The position numbers and the translations under genes were made by a program. A stretch of 31,952 bases of DNA from JBBIPZ01 sp037442505 [NCBI: Deltaproteobacteria bacterium] (GTDB lineage: Bacteria; CALINM01). Location of the stretch: the NCBI GenBank assembly GCA_037442505.1, contig JBBIPZ010000019.1:13147-45098 (forward strand), read 5' to 3'. The notes below the pieces were generated by a model that did no database searches, was not told the DNA's origin, and was given only the letters and a program-made list of their open reading frames with translations. This document shows positions 7,513 through 13,281 of this stretch, in pieces; the stretch's first letter is position 1; each line of letters begins with the position of its first letter.

Positions 7513-8475
7513 ATGACGCGTGTTTTGGTTTTGTTGATATTGTTGCTGGTTTCCGCTTGTAGCTACTTATCTGAATCTAAGCCCATTCTTAAACAAACAG
7601 ACTATGAAAAGATGATTGCAGGCAGCTTTGATGCAGACTATATCGGAACTGATAACTGTCTTTTCAAGTGTCATCAACACGATAAAATCAGGGATAATTT
7701 TGACAAGAGTGTTCATGCATCACAAATTAACAAAGAGACTATGCTACCATTGATAAATTGCGAGACCTGCCACGGACCCGGTAGTAAAGCAGTAGAAGAA
7801 ATAAGGCTTGTTAATGGTAATCCACAATGTAATTATAGTTCTCTTATCGATCTTAAAAAATTGCCTGCAGCTGCTAAAAACTTGACATGCATAAAATGTC
7901 ACTCTTTGGTTTCTACTCCAAACCTCGCATTGTGGAGAGGATCAACACATGAGGTGGCAGGTGTTGCTTGTAGTGATTGTCATAAACTTCATGTTTCGCC
8001 AAATCAAAAGGTTTTACATGACGATCAGTTTGAACTCTGTACCAGTTGTCATAAAAAGGTAAAGGCAGAGGTTAAAAACATTTCACATCATCCTGTTGGT
8101 GAAAAAAAGCTTATTTGTACGGATTGTCATAACCCACATGGTTCAGTCACAGATAAGCTTTTAAAGCGAGAGAATATCAGGGAGACCTGTATTTACTGTC
8201 ATAAAGAAAAAGGAGGTCCTTTCACATTCGAGCATGCAGATTTGATGGATGATTGTAACAACTGCCATAAACCGCACGGTTCTATGAACGATAATCTTTT
8301 AAGGAAAAGAGAACCTATTTTATGCTTGAACTGCCACGCTGGACATAACTCTGCCTCTTCAACGTCTTTGCAAGGGCTGTCTAATTCACTAAAGGCAAAA
8401 CTTTATAACCGTTGCACAGATTGTCATGGAAGTATCCACGGGACAGATTTACCCGGCAAAAAGATGTTAAGGTAA
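7513..8475 (+). CDS. Lipid-anchored decaheme c-type cytochrome, DmsE/MtrA-like
   Basis: The 320-residue product starts with a lipoprotein signal whose lipobox VSAC puts the acylated cysteine at 16; Ser17 does not signal inner-membrane retention. It carries nine CXXCH heme sites, at 83, 126, 153, 176, 202, 226, 248, 271 and 301. A tenth site is CLFKCH at 49-54, with three residues between the cysteines. Ten hemes with regular CXXCH..PHG blocks match the DmsE/MtrA family, periplasmic electron carriers that plug into an outer-membrane porin. The porin-like gene follows 11 bases downstream. A role in electron transfer to or across the outer membrane is inferred; the terminal acceptor is unknown. 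A DMSO-type system is less likely without a molybdoenzyme gene nearby. Confidence 0.88.
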   Translation: MTRVLVLLILLLVSACSYLSESKPILKQTDYEKMIAGSFDADYIGTDNCLFKCHQHDKIRDNFDKSVHASQINKETMLPLINCETCHGPGSKAVEEIRLVNGNPQCNYSSLIDLKKLPAAAKNLTCIKCHSLVSTPNLALWRGSTHEVAGVACSDCHKLHVSPNQKVLHDDQFELCTSCHKKVKAEVKNISHHPVGEKKLICTDCHNPHGSVTDKLLKRENIRETCIYCHKEKGGPFTFEHADLMDDCNNCHKPHGSMNDNLLRKREPILCLNCHAGHNSASSTSLQGLSNSLKAKLYNRCTDCHGSIHGTDLPGKKMLR

Positions 8476-8486
8476 AGGGGCGTAAA

Positions 8487-10316
8487 ATGAAAAAGATAAT
8501 TCTAATTTTTGCATCTATACTTTGTTTGACAGCAGTAGCGATAGCACAAGAAGAGAAAAATTACGAGACAACTGTTGAAGTCGGTTATAAATTTTACTCT
8601 GTCGATAAAAATCCTTCTATTGTTAATGAATACTCTAATTCTACTTCGTTTCCTCTATTAAAACTTGCCACAAAAGGTTACAGTGAAAGCTACAAATATA
8701 ACATAATCCTGGACGTTAATGAAAAGGAAGATTACAATTTTGATATTCATGCATACTATCAAGACAAGTTCAGAATAGAAATGACAGGAAATTACCTCGA
8801 CCATAATTTAGGTTTTAAAGATAACAAAGCAATGACATCCCTTTCTTTGGATGAAGAGTACTTTGTTAAATTCAGAAATCAAATGGCTACACTTAAATAT
8901 AAACCTTTTACATATCCGTTCCATATTAGAGTTTCTGCGGAAAAGATAGAAAAAGAAGGTGATTATCAAAAGCGTTTTTATGGAAACTCAAGTTTGAATC
9001 CAGCATATTCAAGTTCGGATGATATATTTAGTAGAAAGGCGCCTGTTAATTACGTTACAAATGTTAGTGGCGTAGCTGTAGACGGATTGTTGGGGGGCGT
9101 GTTGTTTTATTTAGAAGCATCTAAAACCAACTTCAGAGACGAGGCAAAAATAACTGACGATATGCTTTTGAAATCGCCGCAATTTGAAGAAAACTCCTAT
9201 TCACTAAAACTTAATTCAAATCAGGCGGGTAAAATAAGTTATGCATTATCATTTAAAAGGATTGAAAGAGACAATGAGGGACATGATGAGATTAAAAGAG
9301 CAGGGGCAACAAGTAGTTATAATAATACGGGGTTCTTTTTGTCTTTTTATCCAGAAAGCAGATTAAAAGTTAGTTTCAAAGCGTCTTATGAAGACTATGA
9401 TCAGAACAACCCAGACTTTTGGCGTTACAATGGCACAGATTATGTCGCTTCTTATGCAACTTCCTATATTAGAAAATCAGCACAAATTAATGCAAAATAT
9501 ATTATAACAAAAAACTCATATTTTTCAGCCACGCTTAAAGGTAAGGAGCAAGAAAGAGATACAATATATTTCAGCATGCCAGAATACACCAGCCAAACCT
9601 CTGCTAAAATTGAATTTGGCACATCTATAAAAGATAAATGTAGTTTAAAAATCAGCCAATCTTATGTTCATAACAATAACCCGCCATATAAAAATGTAGC
9701 AGAGAATTCTCATAAAACTAATCTGTCGTTTGAACACACAATATCTGATTCTATGTGGTTTGATGTAAATGCTTCGTATCTTTTTGAAACAAGTAATGAC
9801 TCTTTCACTTACTTTGTCGAAAGTAAGACAAAATCAATAAATGCTAACTTTTTCTTCACTCCTTCTGACACCTTAAATCTTGGCTCATATGGTTTAATCG
9901 AAATTCAAGATTATAAGTCTGATTTAAATTTTGGCAAGCCAACAACTGCCGAATACATTATCTCAAGAACACCATACGAGGCAAAAACATATCAATTAGG
10001 TCTAAATGCAAACAAGAGGTTTAGTGTAAAGCAAGAAGTTTATGGAGATATCTTTTATTTAAGAGGTTATGGCACATATATGCCACAATTTGTTTCTGGT
10101 GTAGTAGGCAGCTATAGTTATGATACCACTGACCTTGCCAGATTGGCGGAAGTTGACTTTTATCAATATGGATTACTTTTGGGTACTAAATATAAATTGA
10201 GTTTTAAAGATACGTTGAAATGTGAAGTTAGTTATAAAGATCATAACGAAAATGCAGATACAGCCTTAAATGGTTCAATCAAAACCTTTTTCGTGTCGTG
10301 GGAGCGAAAATGGTGA
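8487..10316 (+). CDS. MtrB/PioB-like outer-membrane beta-barrel protein
   Basis: The 609-residue product has a signal peptide with a likely cut after AIA20. The rest is alternating polar/aromatic beta-strand sequence, and it ends in the aromatic-rich VSWERKW, with the C-terminal aromatic residue that outer-membrane barrels use for assembly. Large size, a position directly after a decaheme cytochrome, and the acidic N-terminal region fit the MtrB/PioB family, which sheathes the cytochrome across the membrane. I see no CXXC near the N-terminus, unlike Shewanella MtrB. I chose the ATG at 8487 because aaagggg lies just upstream and the signal peptide begins there; a longer frame from 8412 has none. 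The 3' end overlaps the next gene. Confidence 0.78.
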   Translation: MKKIILIFASILCLTAVAIAQEEKNYETTVEVGYKFYSVDKNPSIVNEYSNSTSFPLLKLATKGYSESYKYNIILDVNEKEDYNFDIHAYYQDKFRIEMTGNYLDHNLGFKDNKAMTSLSLDEEYFVKFRNQMATLKYKPFTYPFHIRVSAEKIEKEGDYQKRFYGNSSLNPAYSSSDDIFSRKAPVNYVTNVSGVAVDGLLGGVLFYLEASKTNFRDEAKITDDMLLKSPQFEENSYSLKLNSNQAGKISYALSFKRIERDNEGHDEIKRAGATSSYNNTGFFLSFYPESRLKVSFKASYEDYDQNNPDFWRYNGTDYVASYATSYIRKSAQINAKYIITKNSYFSATLKGKEQERDTIYFSMPEYTSQTSAKIEFGTSIKDKCSLKISQSYVHNNNPPYKNVAENSHKTNLSFEHTISDSMWFDVNASYLFETSNDSFTYFVESKTKSINANFFFTPSDTLNLGSYGLIEIQDYKSDLNFGKPTTAEYIISRTPYEAKTYQLGLNANKRFSVKQEVYGDIFYLRGYGTYMPQFVSGVVGSYSYDTTDLARLAEVDFYQYGLLLGTKYKLSFKDTLKCEVSYKDHNENADTALNGSIKTFFVSWERKW

Positions 10317-11224
10317 AGCGAGCACTTTTTCTAATTTTGTTTGCGATGATTTTAGGACATAACGCATATACAAACGATAGAGTTGTTGCGGTTATTCTTG
10401 CATCTAATTTGGCAAAATTTAAGATTGCTTACGAGTTTTTTCAGAATAAAATCAAGGCTAATGGTATTGCAGGAACTATCCAATTTGTTCTTTCCACCAC
10501 TAATCCGGATCCTTCTTCATGGGCAAATGCTGTGAAAAGGGCGGAAGGGCAAGATGTTGATTTTATCATTGCGTTTGGTGCTCCGTTAGTATCTGCTGCT
10601 CTCAGAGAAAAAATAGAAATACCAATAATCTTTGCAGATTTATACGAAACGAAACTTATAGAAGGTGCAAAAGGAAAGATAGGCGGGATTTATAATAACA
10701 TACCAGTAGCGACTGTTATTAAACATCTAACAGCTATTAAAACAATGGGTACTCTTCATGTGTTATTTTGTCCTTTTGAAAAAGAAACAGAACTTCAAGC
10801 AGAAAAAATCAAACAGATCGCTACATTAGAAAAATTGAATGTGTCTTTACATCCAATTACGTCATCATCGAAGATTCCTGATATTAAATTAGCTAACAAC
10901 GATGCGATTTTTCTGACATCATCAATTGTATTAGAAACTGGAATTTCAAGAATTATCGCATTTGCCAATACGCACAAGACACCTGTGGTAGGTTTATCTG
11001 AAACTATCGTCAAAAACGGCGGTTTATTTGCTATAGTTCCAGTGCCAGCTGAACAAGGCTTTGCGTTGGGCAATTATGTTACTAACTACGTTAAAACTGG
11101 GAAATTACCACAAAACCTTCAGTTGACAAAAGTTGATTTTGTCATTAATCTAAGGGTTGCTAAAGATCTGAACATTACAGTGCCGTTTTCGGTACTAAAC
11201 TATGCAACAAAGGTTATAAAATGA
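10310..11224 (+). CDS. Orphan periplasmic substrate-binding protein (ABC_sub_bind/TrpX-like)
   Basis: The 304-residue product has a signal peptide of about 20 residues, then a periplasmic-binding-protein type 1 fold. VVAVILASNLAKF leads lobe one. AEGQDVDFIIAFGAPLVSAAL and EIPIIFADLY resemble the PF04392 ABC_sub_bind family. The ATG at 10310 follows gggag; a GTG at 10298 is possible but lies further inside the porin gene. No permease or ATPase of this type is adjacent. The stop overlaps the ATG of a chemoreceptor gene (ATGA), so it probably delivers ligand to that receptor rather than to a transporter. The ligand cannot be told from sequence. Confidence is high for a binding protein and moderate for the family. 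Confidence 0.75.
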   Translation: MVKRALFLILFAMILGHNAYTNDRVVAVILASNLAKFKIAYEFFQNKIKANGIAGTIQFVLSTTNPDPSSWANAVKRAEGQDVDFIIAFGAPLVSAALREKIEIPIIFADLYETKLIEGAKGKIGGIYNNIPVATVIKHLTAIKTMGTLHVLFCPFEKETELQAEKIKQIATLEKLNVSLHPITSSSKIPDIKLANNDAIFLTSSIVLETGISRIIAFANTHKTPVVGLSETIVKNGGLFAIVPVPAEQGFALGNYVTNYVKTGKLPQNLQLTKVDFVINLRVAKDLNITVPFSVLNYATKVIK

Positions 11225-13281
11225 TAAAGAAAGAAAAAAGTTTAAAAAAGACATTGATGATAATGATTTTTATAGCTGTTGCATTTTCTGTAACAGTGAC
11301 AGGGACAATAGTTTCTGTCAACTTTTATTTAGACTACAAGAAAAGTCTGAAAACCAACGTGATTAAGATAGGTGACAAGATAAAAGCAGACCTTGAACGC
11401 ATTTACTCACTTGGGCTCTCTTTTAAAGACCTGCCAGGCTTTGAATCTGATATCAAAAAATTAGTAGCAGATGAAAATGTGCTCTCTTATATAATGGTTA
11501 CAGACAAAGAAGGCTATGTTCATGTAACTACCGTTGATACTTTTAAGGAAAAAGGCTTTAAGCGCCAGGACGGTGATAGAATAAGAATTAATGGAGAAGA
11601 TGTTATAAATATTGCTGTTAATGTTTTGGGGAGTGATAAAACGGTTGCTTATCAGATTCACTTAGGACTAAAAGAGTCGTTGCTTAATGATAAAATATAT
11701 TCAACTTTTTTTACTTTAATCGTAGTTTGTTTGATGACAGTGGTTTTTATTTTTGCTATCACAAAAACTTTTATTGAAAATAGGCTGTTAGGCCCACTTC
11801 TCGTACTGAAAGAAGGTACTGACAAGATTGCGAAAGGCAATCTCACTGTAAAGGTTGATACCATTCATCATGACGAAGTAGGAATCGTAACTTCAAACTT
11901 CTCTAAAATGGTAGAGGAGATAAGAGAAATTGTAATAGGACTAAAGGAAGGCACAAAGCAGTTACTTCAGGTTAGTGATGTTGTTGAACAGCTGAGCCAT
12001 AATGTGAAAGATGGTTCACTTGGGCAGTTAAATAGTGCTTCACAAATTTTACAGCTTTTTAATGACATTGAAGACAGAATAAACACATTAAAAGGGAAGG
12101 TTAACTCATTAAATGACTTTATAGAATTAACCACCTCCACCTTTTTAGAACTTTCCTCTTCTTCTGAAGAGATATTTAAGACTATGGAAGAACTACTTAA
12201 AAGTGTAGAAAAGGTTGACGATTCATATAAAAAGATTAACCAGATTAATGATAAGCTTGACAAAGGAGCAGATGCATTATCTGTGGAGGTTCAAAATATT
12301 CTCTCCTTTGTGAGTCAGATGGATTCTTCTGTTAAAACGACCCTTAAAACAGTCTCAGAAACTTCTAATATTGCAGACAAAATGGACACTCTTGCGAGAG
12401 AGAGTAAAAAAACACTTAGTGGTACAATTAAAAGCATCGACAAAATTGCTTTTGCTTCTCAAGATGCAAAGGCTTCTTTTTCTATTCTAAAAAACAATAT
12501 TGGGAAAATTAATAGCATTTTAAGCGTGATCGAGGAAGTTGCCGAACAGACAAATATGCTTGCATTAAATGCCGCAATTATAGCAGCACAGAACGAAGAA
12601 GGAGGAAGCGCTTTTTCAGTTGTTGCAGACGAAATAAAGGAACTTTCCAGAAAGACACAATCATCGACTAAAGAGATTGCGGATTTGATAGGGATTATTA
12701 CAGAACAAACAGAAAAAGTTTTTTCAAAGATTCAGGAGAATGCAAACGATGGTGAAGTTGCTTCAGCATATTCCAAAGAGATAGAGCAAAAGATATCTGA
12801 AATAATCGATTTGATTGCAAAGGTTACTGTTGGTGTAAAAGAAATTCTTAAAGCGTCAAACGAACAAGCTCAGGGCAGCTCTACGCTAAGAAATGAAGCT
12901 GAAACACTTAGTGCTCTCTCGAATGAATTGAAGAACCTGCGTGATGAAGGCAAAATTGGAAGCAGGAATTTAGGAGAGATGGTTGATTTTATCTCCGAAG
13001 TTGCAGGGAAGGTTGGCGCAGCGGTTAAAGAGCAGACAGAATCAATTGGGAGCTTAAAACATTCTGTAGTTGATTTAAGTGGCTTTTCCAAAGATATGTT
13101 GGAACATATTGAGAACGAAATAAAACAGTTCAACATTGCAAAGCCTGTCTTAGCTGATATACAGAAACTTGCAACTCATAATAGTGAATTGGCAAGAACT
13201 CTGGATGATAAGCTTTCTGAGTTAAAACAACAGATTGCGAGATTCAAAGAGGTTACACAGCGTTTTATAGTAGAAGAATAA
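11221..13281 (+). CDS. Methyl-accepting chemotaxis protein with single-Cache-like periplasmic domain
   Basis: The 686-residue receptor has helix TM1 near 11-36 and a periplasmic domain near 37-159 containing SYIMVTDKEGYVHVTT, which looks like a PAS-like sCache fold. TM2 lies near 160-181, a HAMP domain near 183-240, then a long helical cytoplasmic rod. The signalling hairpin is clear: VAEQTNMLALNAAIIAAQ (440-457) followed by AFSVVADEIKELSRKT. It would control CheA and so bias flagellar or pilus motility. The ATGA overlap with the upstream binding protein suggests the two work together. No che genes are in the window. The C-terminus has no CheR/CheB-tethering pentapeptide. Confidence 0.93.
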   Translation: MIKKEKSLKKTLMIMIFIAVAFSVTVTGTIVSVNFYLDYKKSLKTNVIKIGDKIKADLERIYSLGLSFKDLPGFESDIKKLVADENVLSYIMVTDKEGYVHVTTVDTFKEKGFKRQDGDRIRINGEDVINIAVNVLGSDKTVAYQIHLGLKESLLNDKIYSTFFTLIVVCLMTVVFIFAITKTFIENRLLGPLLVLKEGTDKIAKGNLTVKVDTIHHDEVGIVTSNFSKMVEEIREIVIGLKEGTKQLLQVSDVVEQLSHNVKDGSLGQLNSASQILQLFNDIEDRINTLKGKVNSLNDFIELTTSTFLELSSSSEEIFKTMEELLKSVEKVDDSYKKINQINDKLDKGADALSVEVQNILSFVSQMDSSVKTTLKTVSETSNIADKMDTLARESKKTLSGTIKSIDKIAFASQDAKASFSILKNNIGKINSILSVIEEVAEQTNMLALNAAIIAAQNEEGGSAFSVVADEIKELSRKTQSSTKEIADLIGIITEQTEKVFSKIQENANDGEVASAYSKEIEQKISEIIDLIAKVTVGVKEILKASNEQAQGSSTLRNEAETLSALSNELKNLRDEGKIGSRNLGEMVDFISEVAGKVGAAVKEQTESIGSLKHSVVDLSGFSKDMLEHIENEIKQFNIAKPVLADIQKLATHNSELARTLDDKLSELKQQIARFKEVTQRFIVEE

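What the first reader, a model, noticed from the sequence alone, without database searches (positions are those of the whole stretch)
7513..13281. Decaheme cytochrome + MtrB-like porin + lone binding protein + chemoreceptor in one apparent operon
The cytochrome and porin are the minimal parts of an outer-membrane electron conduit. The next two genes encode a periplasmic binding protein with no transporter, and an MCP. The junctions are an 11-base gap, an overlap and an ATGA overlap. This layout suggests taxis linked directly to extracellular electron transfer: the receptor may read the presence of an extracellular acceptor or shuttle (such as a flavin, quinone or metal complex) that the conduit reduces. 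I do not know of a described system with this exact order. No secreted extracellular cytochrome (MtrC-like) is present.
Basis: partly seen in the sequence, partly recalled or inferred. Interest (0 to 1): 0.65.

Follow-up and report, generated by a model that had tools for sequence, protein, structure and literature searches.

The report
Electron conduit genes with sensory partners
Four neighbouring genes seem to form one unit that carries electrons out through a bacterium's outer membrane and pairs this with a binding protein and a receptor; most of the unit recurs in three bacterial phyla, so the link between electron export and sensing is probably real.

Summary
In detail: a decaheme MtrA-like lipoprotein, a 26-strand MtrB-like barrel, a soluble PF04392 binding protein and an MCP lie head to tail, with an 11-nt gap, a 7-nt overlap and an ATGA overlap. 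The order recurs in the three genomes held of the window's small phylum. Cytochrome-porin-binding protein recurs in 33 of 36 Nitrospirota and 52 of 58 Desulfuromonadia loci with enough flank; many continue with an MCP, or with a second binding protein plus a heme-motif kinase. Among 245 Nitrospirota genomes, 42 of 43 with the cytochrome but only 3 of 202 without it have a strong copy of the binding protein.

The conduit is of the OmcK/OmcL kind (GSU2203/GSU2204). In all readable related loci the binding protein is followed by a transducer or PhnD-like protein, not a permease. So binding protein plus MCP is most likely a sensory pair tied to the conduit.

Pili, attachment or matrix control are as likely. 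The ligand is unknown; the nearest solved relatives and six trpE-linked modules suggest something aromatic. I found no account of the combination in the open-access library searched.

The parts
7513..8475 (+). decaheme c-type cytochrome, MtrA/DmsE/OmcK-like, with lipobox (LVSAC)
   Evidence: TIGR03508 263.7 bits over the cut-off; profile matches 6r2q_A at 1e-61; 9 CXXCH plus one CX3CH (family count)
8487..10316 (+). MtrB/OmcL-like outer-membrane beta-barrel of 26 predicted strands, without a CXXCH of its own
   Evidence: AlphaFold2 model, best PDB match 6r2q_B Z 23.7; all 33 aligned family members, this one included, match NF041027 at E 0.001 or better and 21 of 33, not this one, match PF11854 MtrB_PioB at E 0.1 or better
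10310..11224 (+). soluble periplasmic binding protein, PF04392 (ABC_sub_bind, TrpX fold), signal peptide without lipobox (by eye)
11221..13281 (+). methyl-accepting chemoreceptor: TM, periplasmic domain (sCache-like in homologues), TM, HAMP, long coiled-coil signalling hairpin with tip NAAIIAAQ
   Evidence: PF00015 2e-30, HAMP 2.8e-07; Nitrospirota homologues match sCache_3_2; alignments A2, A6
10310..10316 (+). 7-nt overlap of porin stop and binding-protein start (ATGGTGA)
   Evidence: in 90 loci, taking the start codon nearest the porin stop, overlap in 38 and 30 nt or less in 81
11221..11224 (+). ATGA overlap of binding-protein stop and MCP start
   Evidence: in 33 loci, same rule, -4 overlap in 14 and 60 nt or less in 32

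Best explanation
The four genes are one unit: an OmcK/OmcL-type outer-membrane electron conduit (decaheme lipoprotein threaded through a 26-strand barrel) made together with its own sensory pair. The periplasmic binding protein captures a small ligand, most likely aromatic and amino-acid-sized. When loaded it docks on the periplasmic domain of the MCP, which passes the signal through HAMP to a CheA pathway. The likely logic is to match conduit use with behaviour towards surfaces or acceptors: twitching, attachment, matrix or, in some species, flagellar steering. Shown here: gene content, order, junctions, recurrence in three phyla, folds by prediction, co-occurrence of binding protein and conduit across Nitrospirota genomes, and that relatives of the binding protein are followed by transducers or PhnD-like proteins. 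Inferred: docking, ligand class, electron flow, and the behavioural output.
For: Order kept in the window and L001-L003 (L001 is cut inside the MCP by the contig end) with flanks differing between the window and L001/L002; these are the 3 species held in that phylum, which the window joins by AtpD identity of 94-95% against 80% in two Desulfuromonadia. By profile position, binding protein after the porin in 33 of 36 Nitrospirota and 52 of 58 Desulfuromonadia loci; MCP in 23 of 36 and 14 of 58 (10 of these 14 with the binding protein); PhnD-like protein in 5 of 36. Of 245 Nitrospirota genomes, 42 of 43 with the cytochrome and 3 of 202 without it have a binding protein at 1e-60 or better; the next genome without it is at 1e-42 (kinship not corrected, and the profile held linked members). 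Tight junctions. Of 20 further strong binding-protein loci, 19 can be read: all are followed by a PhnD-like protein or MCP, none by a permease. Two other PF04392 genes in G002 and one in G001 sit next to dCache-HAMP-GGDEF proteins or a hybrid kinase. Binding-protein tree: 5 changes of transducer label over 108 labelled rows, shuffled mean 47 (label largely follows phylum). The 5 linked kinases seen in full each have one CXXCH between the membrane spans. GSU2203/GSU2204 rise with hematite and magnetite (PMC4070692 Table 2 passage).
Against: In 42 of 58 Desulfuromonadia loci no transducer follows the binding protein, 4 have porin-MCP without it, and 5 of 94 loci have the porin alone. MCP sensor domains differ between phyla (sCache_3-like against CHASE4-like), so a single docking mode is not evident. 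In L223 and L224 an ABC ATPase and multi-span membrane genes lie upstream of the module on the same strand, so a transporter link is not excluded there. The window's own whole genome is not held. No docking, ligand or electron transfer was tested.
Confidence: 0.6

Rival explanations
1. The binding protein and MCP form an ordinary chemoreceptor pair for an aromatic amino acid or related metabolite. They are co-transcribed with the conduit because both are needed under the same conditions, not because the conduit has anything to do with the signal.
For: The closest solved structures are 3lkv, 3lft (with L-Trp) and 6hni at Z 32-34, next distinct protein 21. Six unlinked binding protein-PhnD modules lie 2-80 nt behind a trpE-like gene (three scanned; all six alike). 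Binding proteins docking on MCPs is a known general mechanism (PMC9602780, passages).
Against: The binding protein is beside this conduit in 85 of 94 loci of two groups, even where no transducer follows, and is nearly confined to genomes that have the conduit in Nitrospirota. The 5 linked kinases carry a heme motif, which suggests a redox input.
Confidence: 0.25
2. The binding protein is a working part of the conduit itself (assembly, or holding a small redox or metal ligand in the periplasm), and the MCP or kinase is a later add-on that reads it.
For: 42 of 58 Desulfuromonadia loci keep cytochrome-porin-binding protein without a transducer. Strong copies are nearly confined to conduit-bearing Nitrospirota genomes.
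Against: The same group of binding proteins stands with PhnD-like protein and kinase, without cytochrome or porin beside it, in 14 loci (one at a contig edge, L231; in one, L221, the kinase is cut off); but 13 of these 14 genomes have the cytochrome elsewhere, so this is only partial evidence. No linked binding protein has a CXXCH.
Confidence: 0.12
3. The arrangement is fortuitous: neighbours by descent, without a joint function.
For: Many loci are from related genomes, and some lack one or other part.
Against: Recurrence in three phyla with tight junctions, replacement of the MCP by another transducer at the same position, and co-occurrence even when unlinked.
Confidence: 0.03

Closest known systems
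OmcK/OmcL conduit (GSU2203/GSU2204; OmcKL operon of HotSeep-1)
   Same: Same two-gene cytochrome-porin core by family models; up-regulated with hematite and magnetite (PMC4070692, Table 2 passage); proposed conduit in syntrophic sulfate reducers, with no periplasmic cytochrome gene adjacent (PMC10553843, passages).
   Different: The main text of PMC10553843 holds none of the terms chemotaxis, methyl-accepting or substrate-binding. The window porin scores only 45.5 bits on NF041027 (cut-off 350) and has no CXXCH; 84 of 104 porin frames examined have none and 20 have one.
MtrCAB of Shewanella
   Same: Cytochrome matches 6r2q_A, barrel matches 6r2q_B (one search prints another molecule name for chain A, and that it is MtrA is recalled).
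   Different: No MtrC-like gene in the window; the cytochrome has a lipobox; sensory genes are attached.
TrpX/CD0873-type binding proteins (3lft, 3lkv, 6hni)
   Same: Fold, Z 32-34 over about 280 residues.
   Different: 15-21% identity, 64.8 bits on the TrpX equivalog (cut-off 390); partner is a transducer, not a permease, in the window and in the readable related loci.
Congregation/energy taxis of Shewanella (MtrBC/OmcA with MCP SO_2240)
   Same: Both EET genes and an MCP are needed for accumulation at minerals (PMC5789149, abstract and passages).
   Different: Locus tags there (SO_1776-1779 and SO_2240) show the genes are not adjacent, and no binding protein is named in the passages seen.

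Membership tests
porin-cytochrome (MtrAB-type) conduit | MtrA-like multiheme cytochrome | tested here: met
   10 heme motifs; profile matches 6r2q_A at 1e-61
porin-cytochrome (MtrAB-type) conduit | MtrB-like 26-strand barrel encoded next to it | tested here: met
   by predicted structure, 6r2q_B Z 23.7
porin-cytochrome (MtrAB-type) conduit | extracellular MtrC/OmcA-like cytochrome (present in MtrCAB, not needed in OmcKL) | tested here: not met
   none in the window; relatives carry large multihemes elsewhere, e.g. 36 CXXCH in G002
porin-cytochrome (MtrAB-type) conduit | electron transfer across the outer membrane | not testable with these tools
   needs biochemistry
GSU2204 equivalog domain (NF041027) | score over the curated cut-off and CXXCH | tested here: not met
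   45.5 of 350 bits, no CXXCH; a distant relative of the family
GSU2203 family (NF041028, model type exception) | score over the curated cut-off | tested here: not met
   246 of 325 bits
DmsE family (TIGR03508) | score over the cut-off | tested here: met
   263.7 bits, cut-off 192.2
DMSO-respiration cluster DmsEFAB | dmsAB reductase genes alongside | tested here: not met
   none among the 29 window proteins scanned (ORFs between 1507 and 5105 were not scanned), and the largest ORF of the window is the 686-residue MCP
TrpXYZ transporter | binding protein beside its permease and ATPase | tested here: not met
   the next ABC transporter has its own SBP_bac_3 protein; TrpX model 64.8 of 390 bits
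methyl-accepting chemoreceptor | HAMP plus MCP signalling domain | tested here: met
flagellar chemotaxis receptor | host with flagellar motor | tested here: inconclusive
   FliG clear in G001 and G002, not found in G003; 6 of 36 MCP-type genomes overall; window genome not held

The most novel reading that the evidence does not exclude
The conduit is itself part of the sense organ: electrons are sent through OmcK/OmcL to probe for an outside acceptor, and the loaded or redox-changed state in the periplasm is read by the binding protein plus a swappable transducer (MCP, heme kinase). It would be a dedicated acceptor-detection module that mostly controls non-flagellar behaviour and is distinct from the cell's respiratory conduits.
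Probability: 0.18. Interest if true: 0.87.

Novelty: new variant of a known kind. Interest (0 to 1): 0.6.

Why it matters
How bacteria find or recognise solid electron acceptors is open. A conserved unit that places an outer-membrane electron conduit next to a binding protein and a receptor gives named genes to test. The cytochrome-porin-binding protein part is common in Desulfuromonadia, the group of the laboratory genus Geobacter, so it can be tested in culture.

Tried and rejected
Partner importer: no permease follows the binding protein in the 19 readable unlinked loci or beside the other PF04392 genes of G001/G002. Caveat: in L223 and L224 an ABC ATPase and multi-span membrane genes lie upstream on the same strand; only the L223 ATPase and the 330-residue L223 protein (no Pfam hit) were scanned. 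Not testable in the window's own genome.

Separate promoter for the binding protein/MCP: 22 promoter-like sites against 20.9 in shuffles, so no signal either way.

Tree as proof of pairing: 5 changes of transducer label look striking, but 41 of 47 'none' rows are Desulfuromonadia, so label and phylum are confounded; on linked loci alone the label changes 6 times on the binding-protein tree and 8 on the cytochrome tree, a small difference. In that tree L237 counts as unlinked though a porin end lies before it, L096 as HK though no kinase was seen, and L232 as MCP on a partial hit.

Flavin or quinone ligand: no evidence found. Pocket comparison among transducer groups gave shared conserved positions but no ligand call; I had no coordinates to map them.

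TrpE-linked modules: in the three proteins scanned the best model is TIGR00564 trpE, just under its cut-off; the other three were matched to one of them only. I do not claim a phenazine or menaquinone link.

MCP heptad class: the hairpin arm is about 210 residues by my count, near the 64H class listed in PMC8235581 (passages); not classified formally.

Porin by sequence: no PDB hit even at E 1; only structure and family profiles showed MtrB kinship.

The first scan of genome contigs, with the binding protein, found no relative. The literature search is limited to open-access PMC; I found no description of the combination there. Of the papers listed I saw passages or abstracts, none in full.

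FliG counts leave out five weak hits (E 1e-13 to 1e-18, in G010, G020, G029, G053, G157) and one marginal hit (G270) among MCP-type genomes; with all six the count is 12 of 36. G436 had a marginal hit in the other group, also left out. Incomplete assemblies lower such counts too. The 4 porin-MCP genomes without the binding protein were not in this test, and only 20 genomes of the transducer-less kind were.
Full report
What is there. Four genes on the + strand, 7513-13281, follow one another with an 11-nt gap, a 7-nt overlap and an ATGA overlap, and stand 82 and 89 nt away from the cobalamin genes upstream and the amino-acid ABC transporter downstream. The first encodes a 320-residue protein with a lipobox, nine CXXCH and one CX3CH motif. 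In 108 loci (window included, one genome twice) all 108 cytochromes have nine CXXCH and 106 have a CX3CH in the first 110 residues. It passes the DmsE-family model, and the family profile matches 6r2q_A over 271 positions at 1e-61. The second encodes a barrel that no Pfam model recognises on its own. Its AlphaFold2 model has 26 long strands by my count and matches 6r2q_B best, Z 23.7 over 547 residues with a clear step to the next row. All 33 aligned family members match the GSU2204 model; 21 of 33 match MtrB_PioB at E 0.1 or better. The third is a soluble PF04392 binding protein with the fold of 3lkv, 3lft and 6hni. The fourth is an MCP with HAMP; its N-terminal third aligns with Nitrospirota MCPs, of which the four scanned match sCache_3_2, one of them under the cut-off.

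Conservation. No genome is held for the window. A scan with the cytochrome found L001-L009. L001-L003 keep all four genes; L001 ends inside the MCP. They are the three species held in their phylum. The window belongs with them: AtpD is 94-95% identical, against 80% in two Desulfuromonadia and 70-75% in two Nitrospirota genomes. The cytochrome family occurs in 43 of 245 Nitrospirota and 100 of 277 genomes of the class of G004 at 1e-70. I fetched 40 and 60 loci; 36 and 58 have at least 3.3 kb downstream. Counts are by profile hit, partial frames included. In Nitrospirota, 33 of 36 have porin then binding protein; 23 continue with an MCP, 5 with a PhnD-like protein (four of these with a kinase), 5 with neither, and 3 have the porin alone. 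In Desulfuromonadia, 52 of 58 have the binding protein, 10 of them followed by an MCP and 42 by no transducer; 4 have porin then MCP, and 2 the porin alone. In two of the Nitrospirota loci without a direct transducer (L110, L112) an MtrC-like multiheme gene comes next, and an MCP after it. Junctions are tight: porin to binding protein 30 nt or less in 81 of 90, binding protein to MCP 60 nt or less in 32 of 33, with the ATGA overlap in 14 of 33, taking the start codon nearest the preceding stop.

Co-occurrence. Of the same 245 Nitrospirota genomes, 42 of the 43 with the cytochrome have a binding protein at 1e-60 or better (the exception is G036), against 3 of the 202 without it (G073, G089, G222); the next best genome without it stands at 1e-42. 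G089 shows a porin end beside its binding protein at a contig edge. Fisher p is 1.6e-42, but kinship is not corrected and the search profile contained linked members. The three Nitrospirota loci with the porin alone (L084, L086, L105) lie in G112, G037 and G169, and each of these genomes has an unlinked binding protein-PhnD-kinase module elsewhere (L226, L225, L227).

What the binding protein does. I fetched 20 further strong relatives away from the listed cytochrome loci. Fourteen are followed by a PhnD-like protein, 13 of them with a kinase that has one heme motif and one cut by a contig end; one is followed by a PhnD-like protein and a partial MCP; four by an MCP (one of which, L237, proved to follow a porin end); one cannot be read. 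None is followed by a permease. In L223 and L224, however, an ABC ATPase and multi-span membrane genes lie upstream on the same strand. In G002 and G001 the other PF04392 proteins sit next to dCache-HAMP-GGDEF proteins or a hybrid kinase. A tree of 109 binding proteins needs 5 changes of transducer label against a shuffled mean of 47, and 6 changes for conduit-linked versus unlinked; since 41 of 47 'none' rows are Desulfuromonadia, the label is confounded with phylum and I give the tree little weight. The family behaves like a sensory binding protein whose transducer can be exchanged. The general mechanism, a loaded binding protein docking on a receptor, is described in PMC9602780 (passages).

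What the signal might be. The nearest structures include one solved with L-Trp (3lft; that 6hni binds tyrosine is recalled). In six unlinked modules the binding protein lies 2-80 nt behind a trpE-like gene. Both point to an aromatic ligand and speak against, without excluding, a flavin. On the other hand, the five conduit-linked kinases seen in full carry one heme motif each, which suggests a redox input in that variant.

What the output might be. FliG at E below 1e-30 is found in 6 of 36 genomes with the MCP version, 4 of 6 with the PhnD/kinase version and 13 of 20 with no transducer (Fisher p 0.0004 for the first against the last, not corrected for kinship, and assemblies may be incomplete). 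In the window's phylum G001 and G002 have FliG; in G003 it was not found. Non-flagellar chemosensory roles are reported or proposed in Geobacter: esnABCD mutants fail to colonise electrodes (PMC8235581, passages), and Dif-like and beta-group clusters may regulate matrix (PMC2577667, passages; stated there as under study or preliminary). I therefore do not adopt plain taxis as the output.

What is known. The core is the OmcK/OmcL conduit. GSU2203 and GSU2204 rise with hematite and magnetite (PMC4070692, Table 2), and OmcKL is proposed as a conduit in HotSeep-1 and Seep-SRB2 (PMC10553843, passages), whose main text has no chemotaxis, methyl-accepting or substrate-binding term. Shewanella congregation needs MtrBC/OmcA and an MCP (PMC5789149, passages). 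I found no paper on the combination in the searches named under Tried and rejected.

Verdict. The unit and its conservation are firm. The sensory pairing is likely. The ligand, the docking and the behaviour are open.

Noticed in passing
L221, L222, L225, L227, L228, L236: Binding protein-PhnD modules lie 2-80 nt downstream of a trpE-like anthranilate synthase gene.
   Followed up: partly
L121:3047-5941 (-), L122:7009-9912 (+): MCPs with a Phosphonate-bd (PF12974) domain after the signalling domain; in L121 no membrane span is evident between them by eye, so it is apparently in the cytoplasm.
   Followed up: no
L257:5654-10981: A 1776-residue frame with 36 CXXCH motifs begins about 4.2 kb after the linked MCP in G002.
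   Followed up: no
L263:2955-5968: A separate decaheme cytochrome and a 696-residue presumed porin in G002, without a binding protein or MCP recognised beside them (the porin was not scanned).
   Followed up: no
L239, L240: PF04392 binding protein overlapping or abutting a dCache-HAMP-GGDEF protein, next to a metallo-beta-lactamase-fold gene (the latter scanned in L239 only).
   Followed up: partly
L233: Binding protein and MCP beside CheA, response regulators and CheB, so in a chemosensory cluster.
   Followed up: no
L127, L130, L131, L133: Desulfuromonadia loci with porin followed directly by the MCP and no binding protein.
   Followed up: no
L247:896-3750: A PhnD-like binding protein followed by an MCP in G003, a second kind of binding protein-MCP pair.
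   Followed up: no
L223, L224: ABC ATPase and multi-span membrane genes upstream of the binding protein-PhnD-kinase module, same strand.
   Followed up: partly
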